DNA of 51,954 nt, taken from Rhodocyclaceae bacterium (GTDB taxonomy: Bacteria > Pseudomonadota > Gammaproteobacteria > Burkholderiales > Rhodocyclaceae). The stretch spans positions 1 to 51,954 of the forward strand of contig JAGRFQ010000013.1 of the NCBI GenBank assembly GCA_020445945.1. The letters run 5' to 3'. The notes beneath the pieces are model-generated. The model made no database searches, was not told the DNA's origin, and worked only from the letters and a program-made list of their open reading frames with translations. Below, piece after piece: positions 1 to 13,158 of this stretch. How positions within the stretch are numbered: the first letter of the stretch is position 1; each line of letters begins with the position of its first letter. Made by a program: the position numbers and the translations under genes.

Positions 1-120
1 CCGACGCCGCTGGCCGACGGCTTCATGCCGCTGGGCCGGCTGGAGATCGCGCGGCTCGACAACGACCCGAACTTTCCCGAGCACGGCGTGCTGCGCCTTG
101 AACTGCACGGAGGCAAATGA
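1..120 (+). CDS. C-terminal end of an unidentified gene (partial)
   Basis: An open frame enters from the left edge and ends at TGA 118-120, giving the last 39 residues of a protein (ends in LRLELHGGK). The fragment is too short to identify. It is translationally coupled to the next gene: the ATG at 117 overlaps this stop codon, and a GGAGG-type ribosome site sits inside its last codons. Because the next four genes belong to a phage-tail-like or contractile injection operon, this is probably another baseplate component, but that is inferred from position only. Confidence 0.6.
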   Translation, partial: PTPLADGFMPLGRLEIARLDNDPNFPEHGVLRLELHGGK

Positions 121-2930
121 TGAGCACCGCCCGCGTGTCCCCGAAAACCGATTGTGATTGCTGCGCCGGCATCGACGCCGTCACCCCGGCGCGCATCAGC
201 AACCCGCCGGGCCTGTCGCAGATCGCCTACCGCATCGGCCGGCATGGCGACTTCGTCGAATCCATGCGCGCCCGCCTCTCCAGCGCCGACCGCCCCGCGC
301 TGGCCGCGCTCACCACGCGCGAGGCCAGCGACTTCACGCTCGCCATCACCGACGCGCTGGCCACCTCGCTCGACGTGCTCAGCTTCTACACCGAGCGCTT
401 CGCCAACGAGCACTACCTGCGCACCGCCACCGAGCGCCTGTCGGTGCGCGAGATGGCGCGGCTGATCGGCTACGAGCTGGCCCCCGGCGTGGCCGCCGGC
501 ACGCATCTGGCCTTCACGCTGCAGACCATTCCCGGCGCGCCGGCCGAGCCCATCGTGATACCGGTCGGCACCCGCGTGCAAAGCGTGCCGGGGCAGGACG
601 AACAGGCACAGAGCTTCGAGACCGTGGCGCCCACGCCCGCCCGCGCCGAGTGGAACGCCATCCCGGTGCAGACCCGGGTGCGCTGGCTGCCCAAGTCCGG
701 CGACACCGAACTGTGGCTCGATGGCCTGGCCACCGGCCTGCAGCCGGGCGATGCGATCCTCATCGTCGGCAGCGAGCGCATGAGCGACCCCGGCAGCGAG
801 CGCTGGGATGTGCGCGTGCTCGCCAGCGTCACCCCCGACAACGCCAATGCCCGCACCCGCGTGCGCTGGGACCACCCGCTGGGCAGCGCTTTCCCGGCCA
901 TGAGCCCGAGCAGCCTCGGCGTGCAGGTGCATGCCCTGCGTCAGCGCACCGCGCTGTTCGGCCACAACGCGCCCGACCCCAACCTGATGGGCAATGACGA
1001 CTCCAATGTCGCCACGCTGATCGATAAAACCACCAATCCGAACAGCTGGCAGTGGAACAACTTCGCCCTCGACACCTCAGCGCTCGACCTCGATACCGAC
1101 AACGCCAAGATCACCGCCGGCAGCTGGATCGCGCTGGTCTCCAACGAGCCGAGCCTGGGCAGCGCCGCCTTGCCCGGCTACACCGAGCTGTACCGCGCGA
1201 GCAAGGTCATCCACCGCAGCCGCAACGCCTTCGCCATCTCCAGCAAGGTCACGCGGGTGACGCCGGACACCACCGAAAACCTCACCGCCAGCCGCTTTCC
1301 GCTGCGCCGCACGCTGGTGCTGGCGCAAAGCGAGCGGCTGGCCACGGTCGATACGCCGATCTTTCATCCGGTGTATGGCGAGGCGATCACACTCGGCCAG
1401 CGGATTGCCGACTTGCTGCCCGGTCAGCCGATTGCGCTGTCCGGCCCGCGCCAGCGCATCGCCATCGCGCCGCGCGCGGTGGGGCTGTCGCTGAACGTGG
1501 AGGGTGGCGGCAGCGTGGCGCTGGCCGAGGGCGACGAGCTGTTCATGCGCGCGCCGGCGGTGCGCCTGTTCGGCAGCACGCCGGTGGCCCTCAGCGCCGA
1601 TAGCTTTGCCGCGCAACTGGGCAAGGCCGGCGTGGTGCTGCGCCTGGCGCTCGAAGACCGCGACGGGCGCACCGGCACGCTCACCGCCAAGGGCAGCGAG
1701 CTGCGTCTGACCGCCAGCCGCAAGGACGACCCGCTGGTGAGCGAGATCGCCTTCATCGCCACCGCCAACGACCCCATCGTGCTCGACCGCGACCACACCC
1801 ACCTCAAGCTCGCCGCGCCGCTGGCACAGGTGTATGCGCGCGCCGCGCTGCGCATCAACGCCAACGTGGCCCCCGCCACGCATGGCGAAACCGTGGAGGC
1901 CATCCTCGGCGATGGCGACGGCGCGCAGGCCAACCAGCGCTTCGTGCTGGGCCAGGCGCCGCTCACCTTCGTGAGCGCCAACACCGCCAGCGGCCGCGCC
2001 AGCACGCTGCAACTGCGGGTCAATGACGTGTTGTGGGCCGAGGTGCCGACCCTGCATGGCGCCGCGCCCGACGCGCGGGTATTCGAAACCCTGCAGGACG
2101 ACGACGCCCGCACCACGGTGCTCTTCGGCGACGGCGCCGAGGGCGCGCGCCTGCCCAGCGGCAGCACCAACCTGCGGGTGCGCTACCGCAAGGGCCTGGG
2201 CGTGGCCGGCAACCTCGCCGCCGGCAAGCTCACCACCCTGCTGAGCCGCCCGCTGGGCGTCACCGGCGCCACCAACCCGGCGCCGGCCACCGGTGGCGAA
2301 GATGCCGAAACCCTCGCCCGCGCCCGCGACAACGCCCCGCTCACCGTGCTCACCCTCGACCGCGCGGTGTCCATCGACGACTACGCCAACTTCGCCCGCG
2401 CCTTTGCCGGCATCGACAAGGCCCACGCGCTGTGGATTCCGGCCGGGCCGGCGCGCGGGGTGTTGCTGAGCATCGCCGGCATCGACGGCGCGCCGGTGCC
2501 CGAGAGCAGCGACACCTACATCAACCTGCGCAAGGCGCTGGCCACCTACGGCGACCCGCTGGTGCCGCTGCGCCTGCTCAACTACCGCGACGCGCGCTTC
2601 CGCTGTCGGTTGTCGGTCAAGGTGGACGCCGCCTTCGCGCCCGACGCCGTGCTGGTGGCGGTCGATGCCGCGCTACGCACCGCCTTCAGCTTTGCCCGCC
2701 GCGCCTTCGGCCAGACCGTATCCATCGACGAAGTGGCCGCCGTGGCGCAGGACGTGGCCGGCGTGATCGCGGTGCACGTGACCCGCCTGTACCGCGTCGG
2801 CCAGAGCCCCACCGTGGTGGTGCCGCGCCTGTTCGCCGCGCTGCCGGTGGCTTCGCTCACCGCCGTGCCGCCGGCCGCCGAGCTGCTCACCCTCGCCGCC
2901 GACCCGATCGAACTGGAGGTGCTGCCGTGA
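117..2930 (+). CDS. Putative baseplate assembly protein (contractile injection system / phage-tail-like)
   Basis: This 937-residue protein has the hallmarks of the large family annotated as putative baseplate assembly protein in extracellular contractile injection systems and related tail-like particles. The N-terminal 130 residues carry the typical PPGL..IAYRIGRHGDF start and the run SFYTERFANEHYLRTATER, followed by LIGYELAPGVAAGTHLAFTL and a beta-rich middle. The C-terminal third (from about residue 720: GGEDAETLARARDNAP, then VSIDDYANFARAF) is like baseplate protein J/gp47. By family knowledge it would form wedge parts of the baseplate that contact the spike and trigger sheath contraction. 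It starts with ATG ATG overlapping the upstream stop; a start at 120 is equally possible. It overlaps the next gene by 4 nt. No sheath, tube or ATPase gene is visible, so the class of particle cannot be fixed. Confidence 0.85.
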   Translation: MMSTARVSPKTDCDCCAGIDAVTPARISNPPGLSQIAYRIGRHGDFVESMRARLSSADRPALAALTTREASDFTLAITDALATSLDVLSFYTERFANEHYLRTATERLSVREMARLIGYELAPGVAAGTHLAFTLQTIPGAPAEPIVIPVGTRVQSVPGQDEQAQSFETVAPTPARAEWNAIPVQTRVRWLPKSGDTELWLDGLATGLQPGDAILIVGSERMSDPGSERWDVRVLASVTPDNANARTRVRWDHPLGSAFPAMSPSSLGVQVHALRQRTALFGHNAPDPNLMGNDDSNVATLIDKTTNPNSWQWNNFALDTSALDLDTDNAKITAGSWIALVSNEPSLGSAALPGYTELYRASKVIHRSRNAFAISSKVTRVTPDTTENLTASRFPLRRTLVLAQSERLATVDTPIFHPVYGEAITLGQRIADLLPGQPIALSGPRQRIAIAPRAVGLSLNVEGGGSVALAEGDELFMRAPAVRLFGSTPVALSADSFAAQLGKAGVVLRLALEDRDGRTGTLTAKGSELRLTASRKDDPLVSEIAFIATANDPIVLDRDHTHLKLAAPLAQVYARAALRINANVAPATHGETVEAILGDGDGAQANQRFVLGQAPLTFVSANTASGRASTLQLRVNDVLWAEVPTLHGAAPDARVFETLQDDDARTTVLFGDGAEGARLPSGSTNLRVRYRKGLGVAGNLAAGKLTTLLSRPLGVTGATNPAPATGGEDAETLARARDNAPLTVLTLDRAVSIDDYANFARAFAGIDKAHALWIPAGPARGVLLSIAGIDGAPVPESSDTYINLRKALATYGDPLVPLRLLNYRDARFRCRLSVKVDAAFAPDAVLVAVDAALRTAFSFARRAFGQTVSIDEVAAVAQDVAGVIAVHVTRLYRVGQSPTVVVPRLFAALPVASLTAVPPAAELLTLAADPIELEVLP

Positions 2931-4996
2931 GTGCCGATGCGCAAAAACTGTTCGCGCTGCTGCCGGCCATCCACCGCATCCGCGATGCCGAGCAGGCCGC
3001 TGCCGAGGGGCTGGACCGCGGCCCGCTCGAAGAACTCATCGGCGTGCTCGCCGAGCAGCTGGCGGTGGCCGACGAGAGCCTGGAACAGCTCTACGACGAC
3101 CTCTTCATCGAGACCTGCGCCGACTGGGTGGTGCCCTACATCGGCGACCTGATCGGCTACCGCAGCCTGCACCAGGCCGCGCCCGAGGCGGCCAGCGCGC
3201 GCGCCGAGGTGGCCCACACCATCGCCCTGCGCCGACGCAAGGGCACGGCGCTGGTGCTCGAACAGCTCGCGCGCGACGTCACCGGCTGGGACGCCCGCGC
3301 GGTCGAATACTTCCAGCGCCTGTGCACCACGCAGTACATGAATCATCTGCGTCCGGCCAACCTGCACACCCCCGATCTGCGCCGCGCCGAGCCGCTCGAA
3401 TGGATCGGCACCGCCTTCGAGACCGCCAACCGCACGGTGGACGTGCGGCGCATCGAGTCCGGCCGCGGGCGGCACAACATTCCCAACATCGGCCTGCACC
3501 TGTGGCGCATCCAGGCCTGGCCGCACCGCGAATCGCCCGCCACCCGCGCCGGCGTGCGCCGCTACCGCGCCAGCCCCCTCGGCCACGACCTGCCGCTCTA
3601 CAACCGCCCGCTGGCCGAGGACGACATCACCCACCTGGCCGAGCCGGACAACGTGCCCTGGCCGCTGTCGCGCCGCCGCCTCGCCACCCACCTGGCCCGC
3701 CACTACGGTGAGCGCGCCAGCGCCGGCGCGCCGCTGGACAACCCCGACCCGGCGCTGATCCTGCGGGTGAACGGCACGCTCATCGAGCGCGACCGCATCC
3801 GCATCTGCCACCTCGGCGACGAGGCCGCCAGCTGGGCGCACACCCCGCCGCCCAACGGCTTCTATTCGATTGACCCGGTGCTCGGGCGCATCGCCCTGCC
3901 TGCCGACGCGCCCGACCCGGCCGACGTGCGCCTGACCTGGCGCGAAGGTTTTTCGGCCGCGCTTGGCGGGGGCGAGTACGAGCGCGGCGACACCCTGCCG
4001 GTGCCGCCCGCCAGCGTCACCGTGCTGCGCGTGCCCGACGACCACCCCACGCTCGCCGCCGCGCTCACCGCGCTGGCCGGCGACGGCGTGGTCGAGATCA
4101 CCGACAGCAGCCGCTACAGCGAAACGCTGACGATCAACGTGGTGGCCGATGGTGCGGTCGAGATCCGCGCGGCCAACGGCCGCCGGCCGGTGCTCGAACT
4201 GGGCGGGCTCACCGTCAGCGGCGCCGCCAACAGCGCGTGCACGCTCAACGGCCTGCTCATCACTGGCGCGCCGCTGGCCGTGCCCGATGCCGCCGGCAAC
4301 GCGCTGGCCCGGCTCAACCTCATCCACTGCACCCTGGTGCCCGGCATCGCGCTGAACGCCGACGGCAGCCCCACCCAGCCGAGCGCGCCCAGCCTGCAAC
4401 TGGCCATCGCCGGGCTGGAGACCGAGATCGACCGCTGCATCGTCGGCGGCATCCGCAGCCACGAGCGCAGCACCCTGCGCGCCACCGACAGCCTCATCGA
4501 CGCCACCACGCGCGAGGGCGTGGCCTTTGCGGCCATGGATGGCGCGGCGCCCGGCGCGGTGCTGTCGCTGGTCGCCTGCACGGTGGTGGGCACCGTGCAT
4601 ACCGCCGAGGTCGGGCTGATTTCCAACAGCATCCTGCTCGCCTCGGCCGCCCCCGGCGTTGCGCCGGTGCGCGCCGCGCGCAAGCAGGTGGGCTGCGTGC
4701 GCTTCTCGTGGTTGCCGTTTGAATCCATCGTGCCGGCGCGCCACCGCTGCCAGCCCGATTCCGCCCAGAGCGCCCGCCACATCGCCCCGCGCTTCACGTC
4801 CCTGCGCTACGGCACGCCGGCCTACGGCCAGCTCACCACGGCCACGCCGGTCGAGGTGCTGCGCGGCGCCGACGACGAGAGCGAAATGGGCGTCTTCCAT
4901 CACCTCTTCGGTGCCCAGCGCGAAACCAACCTGCGCATCCGCCTCGCGGAATACCTGCGGGTGGGGCTGCGCGCCGGCATCTTCTACGAATCTTGA
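2927..4996 (+). CDS. Phage-tail-like protein with beta-helix-like C-terminal half
   Basis: A 689-residue protein. The GTG start at 2927 overlaps the TGA of the upstream gene (GTGA), and it is the only start that removes a long low-complexity leader read from inside the previous gene. Residues 1-130 (SADAQKLFALLPAIHRIRD, then LEQLYDDLFIETCADWVVPYIGDLIGY) match the N-terminus of the tail-protein family usually encoded directly after the large baseplate assembly protein; in the phage paradigm this is the tail-fibre-attaching protein I position. From about residue 365 the sequence changes to repeats rich in V/I/L, N and G (VEITDSSRYSETLTINVV, CTLNGLLITGAPL, LNLIHCTLVPG), which look like rungs of a right-handed beta-helix. 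It probably anchors or forms part of the fibre. Family membership is fairly sure; the helix is inferred from pattern only. Confidence 0.75.
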   Translation: MSADAQKLFALLPAIHRIRDAEQAAAEGLDRGPLEELIGVLAEQLAVADESLEQLYDDLFIETCADWVVPYIGDLIGYRSLHQAAPEAASARAEVAHTIALRRRKGTALVLEQLARDVTGWDARAVEYFQRLCTTQYMNHLRPANLHTPDLRRAEPLEWIGTAFETANRTVDVRRIESGRGRHNIPNIGLHLWRIQAWPHRESPATRAGVRRYRASPLGHDLPLYNRPLAEDDITHLAEPDNVPWPLSRRRLATHLARHYGERASAGAPLDNPDPALILRVNGTLIERDRIRICHLGDEAASWAHTPPPNGFYSIDPVLGRIALPADAPDPADVRLTWREGFSAALGGGEYERGDTLPVPPASVTVLRVPDDHPTLAAALTALAGDGVVEITDSSRYSETLTINVVADGAVEIRAANGRRPVLELGGLTVSGAANSACTLNGLLITGAPLAVPDAAGNALARLNLIHCTLVPGIALNADGSPTQPSAPSLQLAIAGLETEIDRCIVGGIRSHERSTLRATDSLIDATTREGVAFAAMDGAAPGAVLSLVACTVVGTVHTAEVGLISNSILLASAAPGVAPVRAARKQVGCVRFSWLPFESIVPARHRCQPDSAQSARHIAPRFTSLRYGTPAYGQLTTATPVEVLRGADDESEMGVFHHLFGAQRETNLRIRLAEYLRVGLRAGIFYES

Positions 4997-5009
4997 GGGA
5001 GTCCACATC

Positions 5010-8000
5010 ATGAGTTTCGACCTGAGCCGTATCCGCTTCGACGCCCGCAAGGACTTTTTCGGACTGGTGGTGCAGCAGGGCCGGGTGCAGCTGGACGCCG
5101 AGTGGAATGAATGGGTCGCCCAGCTCGGCCGCCGCCTGCAGGCCGGCACGCTGGACACCTTCGGCGGCAACGTGGTGCCGCGCATCACGCCCGACGGCTT
5201 CCGCATCGAGGCCGCCGGCGGGGCGCTCAGCATCGGCCCCGGCCGCATCTATGTGGACGGCCTGCTGGCCGAGAACCACGGCGGCACGCCCGACGCCTGG
5301 GACCCGCGCCTGGCCGAACTGACCGGCACCACGCCGCTGGCCTACACCGCCCAGCCCTACTACCCCAACCCGCCAGCCCTGCCGGCCGGCGGCCCGCACC
5401 TGGTGTATGTGGATGTGTGGCAGCGCGACATCAGCGCCATCATCGACCCCGGCCTCATCGAGCCCGCCGCGGGCGTGGACACCACCGGCCGGCTGCAAAC
5501 GGTGTGGCAGGTCAAGGTGCTGCCCAACGTGGGCAACGCCACCTGCGCCACCGACGACGCCGACGTTAACGGCTGGCAGGCCGCCACCGCGCCCTCGGCC
5601 GGCCGCCTGAGCACCGACACCGGCGACCCCGCCTTTGCGCCCAACCCCTGCCAGGTGCCGCCCGCCGCCGGTTATCGCGGGCTGGAGAACCAGACCTACC
5701 GGGTGGAGGTGCACACCGGCGGGCCGATCGGCACGGCCACCTTCAAGTGGTCGCGCGACAACGCCACGGTGGCCTCGCGGGTGACCCACATCAACCCGGC
5801 GCGCAACCGCATCACGGTTGAATCCGTCGGGCGCGACGACGTGCTGCGCTTCCATGACGGCGACTGGGTGGAAGTGACCGACGACCACCGCGAGCTGCAC
5901 GGCCTGCCCGGCGAGCTGCGCCGCATCCGCGTGGCCGGCGGGGTGGACGACACCGCCCGCACGCTGAGCTTCGACATCGCGCTGCCGGCCGGCCTGTTCC
6001 CCACCGATGCGCAGCAGGCCACGCAAGCCGCGCGCAACACCCGCGTGCGCCGCTGGGACCAGTCCGGCCAGGTGCGGCGCGAGAACGGCACCGTGGCCAC
6101 CAACCTCGACACCAGCACCACCGGCGAGATCCCCATCCCCGGCGGCACCACGCGGCTGTTTCTGGAGCACGGCATCCTGGTGGACTTCAGCCTCGATCCG
6201 GCCGGCGGCGAGTTCCATACGGGCGACTACTGGGTGTTCGCCGCGCGCACGGCCGACGCCAGCGTGGAAACACTCACCAACGCCCCGCCGCTGGGCATCC
6301 ACCACCACTATGCGCGCCTGGCCATCGTGAACTTCCCCGATGGCGAGACCGACTGCCGCACCCTGTGGCCGCCCATTGCCGAGGGCGAGGGCTGCGACTG
6401 CACGGTGTGCGTGAGCGCCGAGCACCACAACAACGGCACCGCCACCATCCAGCAGGCCATCGACAGCATCAAGGACGAGGGCGGCACCATCTGCCTGGGC
6501 ATTGGCAACTACAGCATCGGCGCGCCGCTGGTGGTCGACGGCGCGCGCTCGCTGCGGTTTCGCGGGCAGGGCTGGGCCACGTTGCTGGTTGGCGCCGAGC
6601 CGGGCAGCGTGTTCGACATCCGCAACAGCACCGGCGTGGCGCTGCAGAACCTGAGCGTGATCGGCTCGGCCCGCGGCGCCGGCAGCACCGCCATGATCGC
6701 CGCGCGCGGCGTGACCGACCTGCGCGCCGAGCACCTTACCGTGCTCGGGCTGGCGGTGGGCGACGGCACGAGTGTGGGCATTGGCCTGGCCGGCAACATG
6801 CTCGGCGTGAGCATCAGCGACTGCGCCATCGTGGCCGAGCGCGGCGTGGCCGCCGTGCCGGGGGGCGATAGCAACTACGTGCTCACCGGCGAGCTGCGCA
6901 TGGCGCGCAACCTGTGCTTCTGCAGCCAGCGCGCGGTGAGCTTCGACACCACCAGCCTGCACTACGCCAGCACGCGCATCGAGGGCAACTTCCTGCTCAA
7001 CGGCAACCAGGCCGCCGTGGTCGCCACCGGCGCGGTGCTGCCGGGTTCGAGCTTTGCGGTGGCCGACAACGTGATCTATACCGCCGGTGACGGCGTGCGC
7101 GCCGGGGTCGATGGCCTCACCGTGGAGCGCAACGAGATCACCGGCATTGGCGAGCGCAGCGGCCACGGCATCGTGCTCGAAGAAGGGCTGGACCCGGTCG
7201 CCATCGACCGGGTGCGCATTGCCGCCAACCGCCTGAGCGGCCTGCGCGGCCACGCCATGCTCCTCACCCAGCAGGTGGACGAGGCGATCATCACCGACAA
7301 CCAGATCGAGCACATCGGCCTCGGCGCGCTGCTCATGGGCGAGGGCGCCGGCGCCGGCCTGCTGCGCCTGGCCGGCAACCAGTGTCAGCACCTGGGCGAA
7401 GCGCTGGGCAACGACAACGCCGCCTTCGTGGCGGTGCAGCTCATCCGCGTCGAGCGCGGCGACGTGCTCGACAACGTCATCGCCCAGGTGGCCCGCTCGG
7501 CGCTCACCAGCCCCGGCATCGACGCCCTGCGCTGCGCCGCCGTGGGGCAGGTGCGCATTGCCGGCAACCGCTTCTTCGGTATCGGTCCGGATCGCATCAG
7601 CGCCCCGGTGGCCGCCATCCGCGTGCTGCCGCCCTTCGACCGCACAGCCATCGACGACAACAGCGTCGAGCGCATCGGCGAAGCCGGGCAGAACCCCATC
7701 GTGATCGAATGGCGGGCCATCAACATTGCCCCCGAGCCGGCCGGCGCGGTGCCCGGCTTCGTGGCCGCCGGCTACTTTGCCGCCGCCGAGTCCGCCTACC
7801 TGCTCACCGCCAGCCGCGCCTTTGCCGTGCTGCTGCGCCCGGCCGCGGTGTCCATCCGCGGCAACCAGCTGCGCGGCCAGGCCACCGGCGTGCCGCTCAA
7901 CCAGTGCGGCGCGGTCGACAGCCTGTTGTTTGCCGACAACCACTGCCAGACCGCCGGCGATGGTGGCAAGGAACCGCTGCTCGGCGAGTTCGGCGGGCGC

Positions 8001-8177
8001 ACCCTCAATGTGAGCAACAACCGGCTCATCGCCCTGGGCGACCTCGACACCCTGCACCTGCACCCGCAGCAAAAGCTCGCCATCGTCATGGGCAACACCA
8101 GCACCGGCAACATCCGCGTGCAGAGCGGCGCGCCCGTGCCCGCCGACATGAGCCTGACCAACATCATCGGAATGTAA
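5010..8177 (+). CDS. DUF6519 / right-handed parallel beta-helix protein (tail-fibre-like)
   Basis: A 1055-residue protein with ATG at 5010 preceded by GAGGGAG, 13 nt after the previous stop. The N-terminus (FDARKDFFGLVVQQGRVQLDAEWNEW) is the signature of the DUF6519 family, which recurs in contractile-injection operons. The first 460 residues form this globular part and end in a CDCTVC motif followed by TIQQAIDSIKDEGGTICLG, the usual entry to a pectate-lyase-like beta-helix. The remainder to residue 1040 is a long series of rungs (for example VADNVIYTAGDGV, ITDNQIEHIGLGALLMGEG, IAGNRFFGIG) with regularly placed N-x-I/F turns. A role as tail fibre, baseplate periphery or surface-binding protein is inferred from context and fold; no catalytic residues are recognisable. 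It is the largest gene of the operon and the best candidate for specificity. Confidence 0.8.
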   Translation: MSFDLSRIRFDARKDFFGLVVQQGRVQLDAEWNEWVAQLGRRLQAGTLDTFGGNVVPRITPDGFRIEAAGGALSIGPGRIYVDGLLAENHGGTPDAWDPRLAELTGTTPLAYTAQPYYPNPPALPAGGPHLVYVDVWQRDISAIIDPGLIEPAAGVDTTGRLQTVWQVKVLPNVGNATCATDDADVNGWQAATAPSAGRLSTDTGDPAFAPNPCQVPPAAGYRGLENQTYRVEVHTGGPIGTATFKWSRDNATVASRVTHINPARNRITVESVGRDDVLRFHDGDWVEVTDDHRELHGLPGELRRIRVAGGVDDTARTLSFDIALPAGLFPTDAQQATQAARNTRVRRWDQSGQVRRENGTVATNLDTSTTGEIPIPGGTTRLFLEHGILVDFSLDPAGGEFHTGDYWVFAARTADASVETLTNAPPLGIHHHYARLAIVNFPDGETDCRTLWPPIAEGEGCDCTVCVSAEHHNNGTATIQQAIDSIKDEGGTICLGIGNYSIGAPLVVDGARSLRFRGQGWATLLVGAEPGSVFDIRNSTGVALQNLSVIGSARGAGSTAMIAARGVTDLRAEHLTVLGLAVGDGTSVGIGLAGNMLGVSISDCAIVAERGVAAVPGGDSNYVLTGELRMARNLCFCSQRAVSFDTTSLHYASTRIEGNFLLNGNQAAVVATGAVLPGSSFAVADNVIYTAGDGVRAGVDGLTVERNEITGIGERSGHGIVLEEGLDPVAIDRVRIAANRLSGLRGHAMLLTQQVDEAIITDNQIEHIGLGALLMGEGAGAGLLRLAGNQCQHLGEALGNDNAAFVAVQLIRVERGDVLDNVIAQVARSALTSPGIDALRCAAVGQVRIAGNRFFGIGPDRISAPVAAIRVLPPFDRTAIDDNSVERIGEAGQNPIVIEWRAINIAPEPAGAVPGFVAAGYFAAAESAYLLTASRAFAVLLRPAAVSIRGNQLRGQATGVPLNQCGAVDSLLFADNHCQTAGDGGKEPLLGEFGGRTLNVSNNRLIALGDLDTLHLHPQQKLAIVMGNTSTGNIRVQSGAPVPADMSLTNIIGM

Positions 8178-8188
8178 GGAGCGCCCCC

Positions 8189-8686
8189 ATGCCCATCGCA
8201 ACCTTTCGCGGCGAAAAAACCGTCGCCGCCATTGCCGACAAACTCTTCGTCAAACTCACGCCCAAACAGCGTGAAAAGGCCGAAGCCGCGCTCATCAAGG
8301 AAAACCCCCAGCTACGCGAACTGGCCACCGTGCCCCAGGGCGCCATCCTGCGCGTGCCCGAACTGCCCGAACTGCGCGCCAAAACCAACCGCAGCCTCGA
8401 AAACCCCGACGTGCAAATCGCCCGCAACCTGGCCGACGCCGTCTCCGCCTACGGCAGCCACCTGGGCGAGCGCTTCAAGGCCGTGCAGAAAGAGGGCAAG
8501 GAACAACTGGCCGTGCTCAAGAGCGGCGAACTGCGCAAAGCCCTCGCCGACGCCCCCGCCTACCGCGCCGTGGCCGACGAAGCCGCCAAGGCGCTGGACG
8601 CGCGGGCGGCTGGGCTGGGCGATCGGCAGAAGGCGGTCGATGCGGCGATCAAGCAGGCGGTGGCGGGGTTGGGGGGGAAGCGGTGA
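8189..8686 (+). CDS. Small LysM-like tail-associated protein with helical C-terminus
   Basis: A 165-residue protein, ATG at 8189 after AAGGAG, 11 nt downstream of the beta-helix gene, so almost certainly in the same operon and its last gene. Residues 1-55 (TVAAIADKLF, AALIKENPQL, VPQGAILRVP) have the beta-alpha-alpha-beta layout and terminal P-x-G-x-x-L-x-V-P of LysM-like domains used in phage and injection-system tail proteins to link tube and baseplate. Residues 70-165 are charged, alanine-rich and predicted helical, ending in GLGGKR. A structural link or a cargo adaptor are both possible; neither can be decided from sequence. No signal peptide is present. Confidence 0.6.
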   Translation: MPIATFRGEKTVAAIADKLFVKLTPKQREKAEAALIKENPQLRELATVPQGAILRVPELPELRAKTNRSLENPDVQIARNLADAVSAYGSHLGERFKAVQKEGKEQLAVLKSGELRKALADAPAYRAVADEAAKALDARAAGLGDRQKAVDAAIKQAVAGLGGKR

Positions 8687-8718
8687 GGTCAGTCTGGCGC
8701 GGACGACGCGGGGCGTAG

Positions 8719-8792
8719 GGTGGGCGGCTTGCCGCCCACCAAGCGGTGCCGGTCGGAAGTCACGTAGGGTGGGTGGCAAGCCACCCTACGTG
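8719..8792. repeat. Two related palindromic repeats (GTAGGGTGGG family)
   Basis: Two hairpin-forming units share the opening CGTAGGGTGGG. The first (8719-8740) is a perfect 10-bp inverted repeat, GGTGGGCGGC / GCCGCCCACC, with a TT loop. The second (8761-8792) is a 12-bp inverted repeat, CACGTAGGGTGG / CCACCCTACGTG, with an 8-nt loop. They follow the last injection-operon gene by about 30 nt and have no T-run, so they resemble REP-type dispersed palindromes more than a terminator, although they could stabilise the 3' end of the transcript. Confidence 0.75.
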
Positions 8793-8882
8793 TGCCGACG
8801 GGAGAAAATGGCGTTGGATGGCCTGATGGATGCCGTTTGGCCGAAACCAGCGCTCGGGCCTTTGGTGGCGCCAGCATGCGAT

Positions 8883-8976
8883 GCGTAGCCCGGATGGGGC
8901 GAGCGCAATCCGGGGTGAGCGATCGATCAACCGATGAATCCCGGAGGCGGCCCGGTGGGCCTTGTCCGGGCTACGC
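8883..8976. repeat. REP-like inverted repeat element (GCGTAGCCCGGA ... TCCGGGCTACGC)
   Basis: Twelve-base perfect inverted arms at 8883-8894 and 8965-8976 enclose about 70 nt including GCGCAATCCGGGG and GAATCCCGGAGG. The arm resembles the CGTAGCCCGGAT...ATCCGGGCTACG palindromes scattered through many beta- and gammaproteobacterial genomes. It lies at the border where base composition drops into the AT-richer island. The rest of 8687-8997 holds no convincing gene. Confidence 0.7.
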
Positions 8977-8997
8977 TTCCTGGGAGGACATCAAAAT

Positions 8998-9537
8998 CTA
9001 TTCGGACGCATGCTCCAAAGAGCCTTCGCTGTCAATTGTGCTGTCGATCCCTGCAATTGCTCTGACCAGTTCACTTCTAGACTTCTGTTTTGCATCCCCA
9101 TTCAGCCCTTCACATACGCTGTTTGCCAACAGGAACCGCTGCGTCCTATCCAATCGGTTTTGAAAATCAGACAACTGGATAGCTGTTTTTCCATAAAGAT
9201 AGAAGTTGATGCCAGCAATTACCTCTATAAGCGATCCACAAATCAAGCTTACGACCGCTATATTTTGATCCTGTTGAGCCACTAAAAAAATTACGGAAAC
9301 CAGAAAAAACCCGAAGCCACCAATGGCTGCAGCTAACGCCCAGCGAAAGCTCCTTGTTGCCTGGTCCAGAACGACGTTGTGGTAGATTGTTAATAACTGA
9401 ATCTGAGAGGCAACAATTTCTTGAACTTTAGATGGGTCGGTTTCAAACAAACGCTTAATAGGCTCCAACTCGATGGTTAGTAGTCCATCTGAGCTGGTAA
9501 TGTATTTAGGTTCCGTTTTGTATTGACCGTTTTCCAT
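8998..9537 (-). CDS. TRADD-N-associated two-TM membrane domain protein
   Basis: A 179-residue protein with two adjacent membrane segments (about 66-88 and 93-113). The block LDQATRSFRWALAAAIGGF, the following FFLVSVIFL, and then ISL-like LICGSLIEVIAGINFYLYG and DRTQRFLLANSVCE match the pattern of the membrane domain found next to TRADD-N-like death-fold domains in bacterial proteins. That domain is thought to be part of conflict or immune-type signalling modules. Here the N-terminal region is only about 55 residues, so an effector or TRADD-N domain seems reduced or absent. The ATG lies 8 nt after the stop of the PEP-CTERM-like gene, with AGG upstream, suggesting co-transcription. Family assignment is from remembered motifs; function is unknown. 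Confidence 0.65.
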   Translation of the reverse strand: MENGQYKTEPKYITSSDGLLTIELEPIKRLFETDPSKVQEIVASQIQLLTIYHNVVLDQATRSFRWALAAAIGGFGFFLVSVIFLVAQQDQNIAVVSLICGSLIEVIAGINFYLYGKTAIQLSDFQNRLDRTQRFLLANSVCEGLNGDAKQKSRSELVRAIAGIDSTIDSEGSLEHASE

Positions 9538-9545
9538 TGAAGTGC

Positions 9546-10229
9546 CTATTGTATCCGGGGTCGGGGCTTGTCTGCGCTACGCTCGCTATTTCCTGTACGA
9601 CGTCGCCCCACACATGCAAGAGCAATGAAACCAGAGATCAGCAATGAAAGCGTTTCTCCCTCAGGTATCTCAAGAGGCGCCTCTGATACTTCAAAATCAA
9701 TTGAATAGTTCCAGCTCGCGCCACCTGTGGAGCTGTTTCTGCTAAATCCTTGCTGAGCAAAGGCAAAAACTGTTGATTCTGATGTCGGAAGGGCCGATAA
9801 GAATAGATCAATAGAGTTTCCTGTCGTAATATCGACCCAGTCGTATGCAATGGTGTTCTCTCCAAGAAAGTATCCATAGTAGTCAGTCATAAGTGAAACT
9901 AGTGTCCTTACCTGGCTAGCGTCTACGTAGTTGGCATCCGTAACTCTGTAGGAGACTTTTTTTAGAACGAGACCCTGATTAAGAACGATAAAAAACGGGT
10001 CGCTGTCAATCCATGAGCGAATGTAAGAGGAGTGGCCTAGAACTGTGTTGGCTCCAGGTTGAAGCTCCAGTGTCGCGCTGAGCGCATTTGGCGGGTAGTA
10101 CTTCATTAAATCACCAGAAACCGCCTCGTCATAAATTACGCTCGATGATGCTGGGTTAGAGAAAATCCAAAGAATCGACGTAATTAATATGGCGAGGAGC
10201 CTGTTCTTCTTGTGTGTGGTTTTATACAT
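9546..10229 (-). CDS. PEP-CTERM-like exported protein with atypical PEG motif and tail extension
   Basis: A 227-residue protein with a signal peptide (KKNRLLAILITSILWIFSNPASS, cleavage near residue 30) and a low-cysteine, beta-rich, Ser/Thr/Tyr-rich body. The C-terminus has the tripartite layout of PEP-CTERM sorting signals: short motif, hydrophobic helix (about 193-208), basic cluster RRR (209-211). Two things are odd. The motif reads IPEGET, so the usual PEP is PEG. A 16-residue hydrophilic tail follows the RRR, where these proteins normally end. Its bases resemble the GC-rich repeats nearby, so the original stop may have been lost. Sorting by an exosortase is family knowledge; no exosortase is in the window. 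ATG at 10229 follows AAGGAAGG. Confidence 0.65.
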   Translation of the reverse strand: MYKTTHKKNRLLAILITSILWIFSNPASSSVIYDEAVSGDLMKYYPPNALSATLELQPGANTVLGHSSYIRSWIDSDPFFIVLNQGLVLKKVSYRVTDANYVDASQVRTLVSLMTDYYGYFLGENTIAYDWVDITTGNSIDLFLSALPTSESTVFAFAQQGFSRNSSTGGASWNYSIDFEVSEAPLEIPEGETLSLLISGFIALACVGRRRTGNSERSADKPRPRIQ

Positions 10230-10259
10230 CTGCCTTCCTTGTTTAATAAACGATTCATT

Positions 10260-10484
10260 CTATTTGTCTAGAGATGGTGTGCGCATTCTTGACAAGAGCG
10301 CAAAGAGCTTGCAAAGAGCAAAGAGCTTGAATTCAGGTCTTGAAATACAACATTCCGCATCGCCTCTTGTTCGGGTGGGGCGGAGATTGTTTGAGGACAT
10401 GAGCGTTGTGCTGTGGATGAACTGGTCGTATTTCAAGACCTGATCTCGGATGTACGTAGAAAAGAAATTTTTTTCCTCGCTCAT
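10260..10484 (-). CDS. Doubtful 74-residue ORF overlapping a palindromic repeat
   Basis: The ATG overlaps the stop of the upstream 154-residue gene (ATGA), which suggests translational coupling. The first 30 residues (MSEEKNFFSTYIRDQVLKYD) look protein-like. The second half, however, is read through one arm of a 16-bp perfect inverted repeat and through repeated AAAGAGCTT units (about 10302-10328), giving a repetitive KLFALCKLFALLSR. It may be a genuine small gene whose 3' part was replaced by a repeat insertion, or no gene at all. No family is recognised. Confidence 0.3.
   Translation of the reverse strand: MSEEKNFFSTYIRDQVLKYDQFIHSTTLMSSNNLRPTRTRGDAECCISRPEFKLFALCKLFALLSRMRTPSLDK
10333..10443. 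repeat. 16-bp perfect inverted repeat (palindromic element)
   Basis: TCAGGTCTTGAAATAC at 10333-10348 recurs as its exact reverse complement at 10428-10443, enclosing 79 nt. The left arm plus its continuation (10334-10364) aligns with 11059-11090 with few mismatches, CAG[G/A]TCTTGAAA..CAACATT..GCAT[C/T]GCC, so this is one copy of a dispersed element and not a chance palindrome. The two copies flank the unknown membrane gene at 10481-10945. It could be a non-autonomous mobile palindrome; no transposase is visible. Confidence 0.6.
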
Positions 10485-10945
10485 GCTCCACCGCCATCTT
10501 TAATATTCAACCCCGATGCAATTTGAGTGCACAGACGGCGAACATTCTCGTCGGTGGACGAGCCGGAAAGGGGTTCCGGAATTTGAGTAAGCAAAAGATG
10601 CTGCCCTCTTGGACCACTTACGTGAATAGACCACCCGCCGTTCTTGTAAAACGGAGTGGCGTAGACGCGCGAGAAATTTGCCAGAGAAATAACTTTTGAT
10701 TTTCGAAAAGGATTTAACGCAGAATAGAAAAACGTGGCTTCCTTCGATTCAAATGAAATCGTTACGTAGTGAACACGAAAAAGCCACCAGGCAGCCAACG
10801 CGCCGAGCGGAAAAGAGGCGACTAGAATGCCGGTAAAATCTCTGGTTGCAAGAATGGCAAAAGCTGAGAAGCAAATCGGAACGCTATACAGCAATGGATT
10901 TTGCTTGGAAGGTAGCAAAATCGAATGCTGCTGTGCTTTAGTCAC
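10481..10945 (-). CDS. Small membrane protein of unknown function, two N-terminal TM segments
   Basis: A 154-residue protein. Hydrophobic segments at about 18-33 and 38-55 form a hairpin, followed by a roughly 100-residue soluble region (VHYVTISFESKEATFFYSAL, then SKVISLANFSRVYATPF, then GGWSIHVSGPRGQHLLL) with alternating hydrophobic strands. This layout, TM hairpin followed by a beta-sandwich of PH-like character, is common in bacterial membrane proteins with YdbT/bPH-like domains, but no motif secures the assignment. It is the first gene of the minus-strand island cluster. Codon use is AT-richer than the flanking core genes. Function unknown. Confidence 0.55.
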   Translation of the reverse strand: MTKAQQHSILLPSKQNPLLYSVPICFSAFAILATRDFTGILVASFPLGALAAWWLFRVHYVTISFESKEATFFYSALNPFRKSKVISLANFSRVYATPFYKNGGWSIHVSGPRGQHLLLTQIPEPLSGSSTDENVRRLCTQIASGLNIKDGGGA

Positions 10946-11364
10946 TTGCGTTCACCAAAATCGTTCGATATGTCGAGTCCACTATTTCTAAATAGAAGAA
11001 GTCGACAGCGTCCTGTCCATTAGGCTGCGCCAATTAATCCTGGGCAGGTATCGGGGGGCAGATCTTGAAAGCCAACATTTTGCATTGCCAACAATCGGAC
11101 ACGTCCTGAACTCTGACTTCACGCGGGTCTGACCCGGCAGCACGTAAGCATACTCCCGAAATGCATGGTTTCGTATCGGGTTCGAGGGGTTCTTGCCGCA
11201 TCTGTCTCGGATGCAGTCGGCCGGCCCGCCCGCGTTCGCTTAGGGCCTTGGGCGAGATGCGCCAAGGCGGTGGGGTGGGACGCTCCGGGGCACCGTTCCC
11301 GGCGTTGGGCCTGCGGCCCGCGGCCGGGCTACGCGGGGCAGCGTGGTTGCGCCCGCCGCCCGCC
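10946..11364. other. Non-coding border region with repeat remnants
   Basis: These 419 bases hold no convincing gene. They contain a second copy of the TCTTGAAA..CAACATT repeat (11059-11090), a short inverted repeat GGGTCTGACCC (11129-11139), and a GC-rich stretch around 11314-11370 with GGCCGGGCTACGCGGGGC that resembles the REP-like arms seen at 8883-8976. Plus-strand open frames here are by-products of GC-rich sequence. The change from AT-rich to GC-rich composition occurs at about 11150-11220. Confidence 0.5.
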
Positions 11365-13158
11365 CTACAACGGCCAGAACAGCGGAATCAGCACACTCGC
11401 GGCGAGCCAGGTGATGAGGTTCATCGGGATGCCGAGGCGGGCGAAGTCGGTGAAGCGGTAGTTGCCGGCGGTGTAGACCAGGGTGTTGGTCTGGTAGCCG
11501 ATAGGGGTGGCGAAGCTGCAGCTGGCGGCGAACATGATGCCGACCACGAAGGGGCGCGGGTCGACGCCGAGTTGCTGGGCGACGCCGATCACCACCGGGG
11601 TGAACAGCACGGCGACGGCGTTGTTGCTGAGAAACTCGGTGGCGATGGAGGTGGCGAGGATGACCAGCGAGAGCATCATCCACGGTGACAGGTCGGCCCC
11701 CACGGTGACCAGCGCGCCGGCCATGAGGTCGGCCAGGCCGGATTCGCGCATGGCGATGCTGATCGCCAGCATGCCGAAAATGAGCATCAGGATCGGCCAT
11801 TCGATGGCCTTATAGGCTTCGTCGGGGCGGATGCAGCCGGTGACGAGCACCACGGCGGCGCCGATCATGGCCAGCGCCTCGATGGGCATGACCTTGAGCG
11901 CGGCGAGCAGCATGACGCCGGTGATGGTGGCCAGCGCGATGGGGGCGCGGGCGTGGCGGTGGGTGGTGCTGCGCGCTTCGGTCAGCGCGAACAGGTCGCC
12001 GTTGTCGCAGAAGCGCTTGATCTGCGCGGGCGTGCCTTCGACCAGCAGCACGTCGCCAAACTGCAGCTGGAAGTCGTCGCCGATGGCCTGGATGGAGGCG
12101 TTGCGCCGGTGCACCCCCACCAGGTGGATGCCGTAGCGCGCGGCGAGGTCGAGGTCGCGGATGGGGCGCTGCACATAGCGCGAGGTCTGGCCCACGATGG
12201 TTTCCACCACCACCACGTCGCGGCGGCGCAGGGTTTCCAGGTCGTGGGTGTCGCCGGCTCGGGCGGAGAGGCCGACCAGGTCGGTGCTGTGCAGGCTCAC
12301 CATGTGCTCGCTGCGGCTGTGCACCACCAGGCGGTCGCCGGCCTGCAGGCGGGTGTCGGCCGGCGGGGCGGCCAGCTCCACGTCGCCGCGGAACAGGGTC
12401 AGCACCTGGATGTCGCCGTTGGCGAGGCGGGCTTCGCGCAGGCTGCGCCCGGCCAGGCGCGAGTCGGCCGGCACGAACAGTTCGGTCATGAACAGGCGGT
12501 CGCCGCTGCCCGAGAACTGCTGGGTGAGCGTCTCGCGCGCTGGCAGCACGCGCCGCGCGAACACCAGCATGAAGGCGCAGCCGAGCAGCGCCATGAGCAG
12601 GGCCGGGGTGGTGATTTCGAACATGCCGAAGGGCGCCAGGCCGTACTCGCGCGCCACGCCGTCGACCAGGATGTTGGTGGAGGTGCCCACCATGGTCAGC
12701 AGGCCGCCGAGGATGGTGGCGTACGACAGCGGGATGAGCAGGCGCGAGGGGGCGATGCCGGCGCGGCTCGACAGCGCGATCACCGCCGGAATCATCACCA
12801 TCACGATGGGCGTGTTGTTGATGAAGGGCGAGACCAGCACCCCGATCAGCAGCATGGCCAGCAGCAGGCGCGCTTCGCTGTGGCCGGCGTGGTGGCCCAG
12901 CCACTCGCCGAGGCGGTCCACACAGCCGGTGCGGCTCAGCGCGCCGCTGATGATGAACAGGCAGGCGATGGTGATGGGCGCGCTGTTGCCGAACACGCCG
13001 AGCACCTGTTTGGCCTCGAGCAGGCCGAGCGCCAGCAGCACCGCCACCGCGGCCATCACCGCCACGTCGGGCTTGAGCCACTCGCGCACGAAGGTGATGA
13101 ACAGCCCGACCAGGACGGCACCAACAACGAGTGCATGGGTGGATTCGGGCAGGGCCAT
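11365..13158 (-). CDS. SLC13-family permease with two RCK-C (TrkA-C) domains
   Basis: A 597-residue inner-membrane transporter. The N-terminal half has hydrophobic helices with the CitMHS/ArsB-like signature SPFINNTPIVMVMIPAV and GTSTNILVDG. A central hydrophilic region carries two TrkA-C-type domains, each containing LQAGDRLVV or LQFGDVLLVEG. The C-terminal half repeats the transporter fold with FLSNNAVAVLFTPV and FATPIGYQTNTLVY. This topology is that of bacterial SLC13/DASS-like permeases, which move dicarboxylates, sulfate or similar anions with sodium or protons; the substrate cannot be read from sequence. The ATG at 13158 gives the usual family length; the frame upstream lacks transporter sequence. 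It is divergent from the P-type ATPase with 247 nt between the starts. Confidence 0.9.
   Translation of the reverse strand: MALPESTHALVVGAVLVGLFITFVREWLKPDVAVMAAVAVLLALGLLEAKQVLGVFGNSAPITIACLFIISGALSRTGCVDRLGEWLGHHAGHSEARLLLAMLLIGVLVSPFINNTPIVMVMIPAVIALSSRAGIAPSRLLIPLSYATILGGLLTMVGTSTNILVDGVAREYGLAPFGMFEITTPALLMALLGCAFMLVFARRVLPARETLTQQFSGSGDRLFMTELFVPADSRLAGRSLREARLANGDIQVLTLFRGDVELAAPPADTRLQAGDRLVVHSRSEHMVSLHSTDLVGLSARAGDTHDLETLRRRDVVVVETIVGQTSRYVQRPIRDLDLAARYGIHLVGVHRRNASIQAIGDDFQLQFGDVLLVEGTPAQIKRFCDNGDLFALTEARSTTHRHARAPIALATITGVMLLAALKVMPIEALAMIGAAVVLVTGCIRPDEAYKAIEWPILMLIFGMLAISIAMRESGLADLMAGALVTVGADLSPWMMLSLVILATSIATEFLSNNAVAVLFTPVVIGVAQQLGVDPRPFVVGIMFAASCSFATPIGYQTNTLVYTAGNYRFTDFARLGIPMNLITWLAASVLIPLFWPL

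What the first reader, a model, noticed from the sequence alone, without database searches (positions are those of the whole stretch)
1..8686. 3' end of a contractile injection / phage-tail-like operon in a chromosomal core context
Five co-directional, mostly overlapping genes encode a large baseplate assembly protein, a tail protein with beta-helix-like tail, a DUF6519 beta-helix protein and a LysM-like protein. No phage lysis, capsid or integrase genes are visible, and the operon abuts core genes on the right. This fits an extracellular contractile injection system or a related intracellular particle, classes where cargo and target are usually unknown.
Basis: partly seen in the sequence, partly recalled or inferred. 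Interest (0 to 1): 0.75.

Follow-up and report, generated by a model that had tools for sequence, protein, structure and literature searches.

The report
Tip genes of a bacterial nanosyringe
These genes encode the tip (baseplate, adaptor and probable target-binding fibre) of a phage-tail-like protein-injection machine of a recently catalogued type, and outside the window its operon carries an exchangeable protein-cutting enzyme that is a good candidate for injected cargo.

Summary
The window starts at a contig end; its first 8,686 bases are the end of one baseplate gene plus four complete co-directional genes: a second Baseplate_J protein (TIGR02243), a gpI-like adaptor fused to a beta-helix, a DUF6519 tail fibre, and a 165-aa protein (real gene, no LysM match). 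Contig C75 of the same assembly joins the window in frame through a 25-nt overlap and carries gp25, PAAR, OB spike, gpD, a tube-like protein and a subtilase; C59 carries sheath and tube (linked by relatives' gene order only). Relatives add Pvc16_N cap, AAA+ ATPase and eCIS_core (DUF4157) genes. No capsid, terminase or integrase turned up in the genes examined. [quoted passage not shown] Less documented: a fixed internal cargo slot holding eCIS_core proteins in 76 of 78 slots read, and in that slot a full-length subtilase (S8, two P-domains), present or absent between loci about 97% identical on either side; close full-length copies were found only beside this eCIS. That it is injected is inferred.

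The parts
1..120 (+). 3' end of the first Baseplate_J gene (J1, TIGR02243, Afp11-like); the rest is on contig C75
   Evidence: 25-nt exact overlap with C75 and in-frame continuation; TIGR02243 282 bits on the C75 part
117..2930 (+). Second Baseplate_J gene (J2), 937 aa, baseplate wedge
   Evidence: TIGR02243 E 5.6e-64; Baseplate_J E 1.7e-8; PHROG baseplate wedge subunit; PDB 9gtp J-like protein E 2.2e-10
2927..4996 (+). gpI-like (Tail_P2_I) adaptor with C-terminal right-handed beta-helix, 689 aa
   Evidence: Tail_P2_I E 0.026 and TIGR02242 E 0.0046, both under cut-off; AlphaFold2 model, residues ~361-560 mostly pLDDT over 90, ~78 to 590; weak Foldseek matches to beta-helix enzymes and tailspikes, none at E 0.001
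5010..8177 (+). DUF6519 (eBAP5) tail fibre, 1055 aa: anchor ~1-500, exchangeable tip ~500-1055
   Evidence: DUF6519 E 4.4e-33; PHROG tail spike E 4.3e-6; identity profile breaks near residue 500; eBAP5 naming from PMC12923769 (passages)
8189..8686 (+). 165-aa protein of unknown role after the fibre, last gene of the operon
   Evidence: ATG at 8189; dN/dS 0.16-0.34 against 7 relatives; no family hit

Best explanation
The region is the baseplate and fibre end of an eCIS of the DUF6519/Tail_P2_I type. Two Baseplate_J proteins and the gpI-like adaptor form the wedges; the adaptor holds the DUF6519 fibre, whose tip binds a surface; binding triggers sheath contraction, which drives tube, OB/PAAR spike and payload into the target. 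Payloads are encoded in an internal slot between the AAA+ ATPase and the tube-like gene: eCIS_core proteins, and in this genome also an S8 subtilase with two P-domains. Shown: gene content, order, homology, conserved catalytic motifs, linkage and repeated gain or loss of the subtilase. Inferred: assembly, fibre-triggered firing, and that the subtilase is injected.
For: Structural set across contigs C59, C75 and the window; same order, as far as in view, in 9 relatives from the order survey and in most of 80 named loci. eCIS_core in 76 of 78 slots seen end to end (of the two exceptions one has a long run of N). Cap Pvc16_N E 1.4e-48, AAA 2.2e-25, eCIS_core 1.1e-28 in relative G138. Tube closest to 7adz (E 2.5e-17, AlgoCIS by recall) and 7b5h (E 3e-16, the Anabaena tCIS, named). 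Subtilase: Peptidase_S8 1.2e-35 and P_proprotein 6.7e-44 with two stretches; all nine aligned copies keep the Asp, His and Ser motifs; dN/dS 0.17-0.25 against three relatives; directly before the tube-like gene in 8 of the 78 complete slots (8 of 89 loci) and in this genome. DUF6519 as fibre anchor and Tail_P2_I as its probable adaptor: PMC12923769, passages read.
Against: AAA+ ATPase and eCIS_core were not recovered in this genome's own contigs (rang in no control genome either, so it does not show absence); cap and the two small genes beside them were not searched there. gpI is assigned below model cut-offs. I recognised no tape-measure gene in the loci annotated (no dedicated search). One of 78 complete slots, G023, has no eCIS_core domain and no sequence gap. 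The subtilase has neither an eCIS_core domain nor the Cys-rich leader of many slot proteins (0 of 7 called S8 genes), so its loading is unproven.
Confidence: 0.92

Rival explanations
1. The particle stays in the producing cell (cytoplasmic or membrane-anchored CIS) and acts in stress or cell death rather than on other cells.
For: Such systems are known in Streptomyces and Anabaena (paper titles and abstract starts in the listings); I noticed no lysis gene in the stretches read (no dedicated search).
Against: A full fibre with a large tip is kept under purifying selection; PMC12923769 treats fibres as a sign of outside targets (passages). Slot enzymes of relatives include an N-acetylmuramoyl-L-alanine amidase and a CHAP protein, fitting attack on cell walls.
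Confidence: 0.12
2. Ordinary prophage tail or R-type tailocin.
For: Baseplate_J and gpI-like proteins are shared with phages; weak phage hits to the second half of J2 (25 records, none covering 80% of it).
Against: No fibre match in 50,697 phage records; no fibre or adaptor relatives in two IMG/VR scans (reaches close relatives only); eCIS parts (Pvc16_N, AAA with WHD, eCIS_core) in relatives; same chromosomal neighbour in four relatives of the Denitromonas group.
Confidence: 0.03
3. The subtilase is not payload but a processing enzyme for slot proteins or particle parts.
For: It sits beside an eCIS_core gene in the same apparent operon; eCIS_core itself carries a metallopeptidase-like motif of unknown role (PMC8213781 and PMC11297309, passages).
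Against: Present or absent between loci about 97% identical on either side, absent from 70 of 78 complete slots, and found with different eCIS_core neighbours, so it is not needed for assembly in general.
Confidence: 0.3

Closest known systems
eBAP5 (DUF6519) eCIS, PMC12923769 (Nat Commun 2026; passages read)
   Same: DUF6519 anchor at the fibre N-terminus, Tail_P2_I adaptor gene upstream, frequent pectin-lyase-like tips, eCIS_core (DUF4157) as marker of the loci
   Different: Here a second Baseplate_J gene stands between the first and the adaptor (J1 called in 72, J2 in 71 places of 80 loci), and the adaptor carries a beta-helix (adaptors of 663-776 aa in nine relatives); the internal slot and the subtilase were not in the passages I read
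AlgoCIS (Algoriphagus) and tCIS (Anabaena)
   Same: Tube homologous (7adz E 2.5e-17, 7b5h E 3e-16)
   Different: No solved structure matched the adaptor (best E 0.36) or the fibre (none up to E 1) by sequence
Afp / PVC
   Same: Shared set: sheath, tube, gp25, PAAR, Baseplate_J, AAA+, Pvc16 cap (role names recalled)
   Different: Tube only weakly similar to Pvc1 (E 8.7e-4); fibre type differs; no recognised tape measure
eCIS-associated toxins (EATs), PMC8213781 and PMC11297309 (passages read)
   Same: eCIS_core (DUF4157) proteins and their neighbours as payload candidates; 46 predicted EATs (2%) are proteases or peptidases
   Different: EATs are reported to tend to the 3' end of operons; here the slot is inside the operon, and an S8 protease with P-domains is not named in the passages read

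Membership tests
eCIS | Contractile sheath and gp19-type tube | tested here: met
   Phage_sheath_1, Phage_sheath_1C, Phage_T4_gp19 on C59 of the same assembly
eCIS | Baseplate and spike: gp25, Baseplate_J, OB, PAAR | tested here: met
   PAAR_motif only E 0.0047, under cut-off; the gpD-like protein has no Pfam hit
eCIS | AAA+ ATPase and Pvc16_N cap | tested here: inconclusive
   Present in relatives; AAA+ only a weak hit in the own assembly, cap not searched there
eCIS | eCIS_core (DUF4157) gene in the locus | tested here: inconclusive
   C75 holds only the C-terminal part of a protein whose relative L046:5881-7245 has eCIS_core E 6.2e-31; the domain itself was not found in the own assembly
eCIS | No capsid, terminase or integrase | tested here: met
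   None among the flanking genes scanned; the gap between C59 and C75 is unseen
eBAP5 subtype | DUF6519 at the fibre N-terminus | tested here: met
   E 4.4e-33
eBAP5 subtype | Tail_P2_I adaptor just upstream of the fibre | tested here: inconclusive
   Right place and helical N-terminus, but E 0.026, under cut-off
eBAP5 subtype | Particle released and fibre binds a target | not testable with these tools
   Needs microscopy and binding assays
Prophage or tailocin | Close relatives of fibre and adaptor in phages | tested here: not met
   J2 has weak partial phage hits

The most novel reading that the evidence does not exclude
This eCIS lineage has an internal payload slot, between the ATPase and the tube-like gene, into which interchangeable enzymes are dropped next to eCIS_core proteins; one of them is a dedicated P-domain subtilase that is carried by the particle and cleaves proteins in the target. 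Clostripain, papain-like, amidase, CHAP, transglutaminase and deacetylase genes occur in the same slot in relatives.
Probability: 0.45. Interest if true: 0.55.

Novelty: new member of a known kind. Interest (0 to 1): 0.4.

Why it matters
The machine itself is of a catalogued type, so the window adds a member rather than a class. What could be used further is the conserved position of the payload slot: it tells where to look for cargo in similar loci, including cargo without the eCIS_core mark. The subtilase, on or off between closely related loci, gives a natural with-and-without pair for testing what such a protease does. The fibre and adaptor have no solved relatives by sequence, so structures would be informative.

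Tried and rejected
Phage origin: rejected. T6SS: no separate search was made for T6SS membrane-complex genes; none was noticed. eCIS_core proteins as tape measure in place of a recognised ruler: not supported, since slot size varies from 1.3 to 8.9 kb and slot make-up varies between near relatives such as the Pseudomonas loci, but not excluded. PDB sequence search with the subtilase profile at E 1e-20 gave nothing. Literature: six searches showed me no paper on a subtilase in an eCIS operon; this is weak evidence, since only open-licence papers are held, long hit lists were seen only in part (12 of 2,374), and four papers were read as passages only (PMC12923769, PMC11297309, PMC8213781, PMC12210884), without supplements.

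Own errors: the 165-aa gene was first scanned in a wrong frame (protein 4, LysM2 rows, whose dN/dS above 1 exposed it); corrected. In one search three of the 22 rows (D. ohlonensis, D. halophila, Thauera) were wrong-frame ORFs and are not used; their fibre identities (93, 94, 66%) are. My gene caller failed on some loci (L065, L079, L086, L118), so slot counts use tblastn and a home-made eCIS_core profile. The 80 named loci are the best 80 of 439 confirmed. G249 was dropped from the tree (gpD split), and four loci without a readable slot were not counted for the label.
Full report
What is there. The window is G000:C26:1-51954 and starts at the contig's first base. Its first 8,686 bases hold the last codons of one Baseplate_J gene and four complete genes on the + strand. 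Family scans identify J2 as TIGR02243 (E 5.6e-64) and the third as DUF6519 (E 4.4e-33). The second is gpI-like only below cut-off (E 0.026; 0.0046); a model from 35 sequences shows a helical N-terminus, poorly modelled in parts between about residues 50 and 195, and a confident right-handed beta-helix at about 365-600, with weak Foldseek matches to beta-helix lyases, esterases and tailspikes, none at E 0.001 or better. The fourth is a real gene (dN/dS 0.16-0.34 against 7 relatives) without any family match.

The rest of the operon. The end of contig C75 and the start of the window share exactly 25 bases, and the first Baseplate_J gene runs through in frame. In relatives the two Baseplate_J genes are adjacent in one contig. 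C75 carries, in operon order: the C-terminal 185 aa of a slot protein (eCIS_core type, by its relatives), an 872-aa subtilase, a 218-aa tube-like protein (CIS_tube E 6e-4, under cut-off), a 120-aa protein (weak Phage_tail_X), a 380-aa gpD-like protein (no Pfam hit), an OB spike (E 1.1e-20), PAAR (weak), gp25 (E 1.5e-16) and J1. C59 carries sheath, tube (gp19, E 4e-46) and the start of a T4_baseplate-like gene, with a sensor kinase and a response regulator further upstream; its place in the operon follows from relatives' gene order. The stretch between C59 and C75, which in relatives holds the rest of that gene, a ~240-aa gene, Pvc16_N, AAA+, an ~85-aa gene and eCIS_core genes (roughly 9 kb in L047), was not found: the AAA+ query gave one weak hit, eCIS_core none (where no control genome rang either), and the others were not searched.

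Relatives. In 399 genomes of the order, 34 (the own one included) have a J2 match at E 0.001, many of them only to the shared Baseplate_J part; none of the 12 same-family genomes listed does. Nine loci of 33-36.5 kb were read; as far as in view they share one gene order (G310 begins after sheath and tube). A genome-wide scan with the tube-like protein confirmed 439 relatives, of which 80 were kept, from Pseudomonadota to Nitrospirota, Acidobacteriota, Chloroflexota, Cyanobacteriota and an archaeon. The closest are Proteobacteria isolate PRO3 131, Denitromonas species and a Zoogloeaceae bacterium (93-99% in this protein). Downstream, the same CitMHS/TrkA_C transporter lies 0.9-4.1 kb from the fibre gene in G399, G401, G402 and G403; in G400 and G405 it is on another contig, and in G404 only a distant match was found. 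This fits a locus settled in the chromosome of the Denitromonas group.

The fibre. Against the window's fibre, 12 of 13 relatives' genomes have a match; 11 of these cover it end to end at 63-98% identity, the Nitrosomonas one only residues 1-544. Aligned in 100-residue bins, identity drops after about residue 500; in Nitrosomonas and G310 the second half is no longer alignable, and in G249 and G028 it is missing. In plasmid records (21 with a match, 20 seen) matches end by residue 569. This is an anchor plus exchangeable tip, as PMC12923769 describes for DUF6519/eBAP5 fibres (passages read).

The payload slot. Between AAA+ and the tube-like gene, 78 of 89 loci can be read end to end; 76 hold one to four eCIS_core domains. 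Of the other two, L071 has a long run of N in the slot and G023 has a short slot without the domain. Of 160 domains, 96 have a CxC...CxxC motif within 170 residues upstream in frame; among the other called + strand gene classes none showed it in the first 170 residues. Other slot genes scanned (10 of the 34 listed) include a clostripain, two papain-like proteases, an amidase, a CHAP protein, a transglutaminase and a polysaccharide deacetylase; two had no Pfam hit and one only a weak one.

The subtilase. It directly precedes the tube-like gene in 8 of the 78 complete slots (L046, L048, L049, L053, L062, L065, L085, L101; 8 of all 89 loci) and in this genome. The other eight copies are 55-90% identical to this one and all keep the catalytic motifs DDG, HGT and GTS (motif roles recalled). 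By eye it has no hydrophobic N-terminal signal. In the genomes of 48 of the 80 named loci, 8 have a near full-length match of 55% or more; 7 are those in the slot and one, in the Halomonas urmiana genome, lies 719 bases after the fibre gene and has one in-frame stop; three further genomes have only distant partial matches. In 399 genomes of the order, at E 1e-30, only the own genome has a full-length match; two have partial ones. The closest relative, L045, is about 97% identical on both sides and lacks the gene: the stop of the slot protein is followed within 8 bases by the tube-like start. On an 89-row tree the label needs 8 changes for 9 rows, at least 6 forced by well-supported branches; 108 of 500 shuffles needed as few, so it is hardly clustered at all. 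So it has come or gone repeatedly at one place. That suggests a dispensable, operon-linked accessory, which I read as payload (about 0.45); a processing enzyme is the main rival.

Known or new. The system meets the tested eCIS features except those hidden in the gap, and its fibre meets the eBAP5 definition. Protease-type toxins are already predicted for eCIS (46 proteins, 2%, PMC11297309, passages). My six literature searches showed nothing on this subtilase or this internal slot, which is not proof of novelty. I rate it a new member of a known kind with one testable new detail.

Noticed in passing
window 8715-8777 and 11355-11368: Three copies of a GTAGGGTGGG-type repeat (0.16 expected from shuffles), two of them just after the operon; REP-like by recall.
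   Followed up: partly
window 8001-12000: G+C drops from about 0.71 to 0.56 after the operon; this stretch holds a CyanoTRADDas_TM protein (9001-9537) and two genes without Pfam or PHROG hits (9549-10229, 10484-10945).
   Followed up: partly
L004:3445-3924 and 4435-4723: Long intergenic stretches with direct and inverted repeats between the PAAR, OB and gpD genes of an otherwise tight operon.
   Followed up: partly
L006:1394-4270: PAS sensor kinase and response regulator upstream of the sheath gene, with one methyltransferase-like gene between; possible regulators.
   Followed up: no
L030:2622-3977 and L042:3129-4547: In relatives G249 and G028 the DUF6519 gene is only 451-472 aa: anchor without tip.
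   Followed up: no
loci, e.g. L032: No tape-measure gene was recognised in this eCIS type; what sets tube length is open (no dedicated search).
   Followed up: partly
L004:6961-9579, C-terminal end: The subtilase has a Lys/Ala-rich tail in the Denitromonas and Azoarcus copies; the Neptunomonas, Nitrosomonas and C1.bin.42 genes end without it.
   Followed up: no
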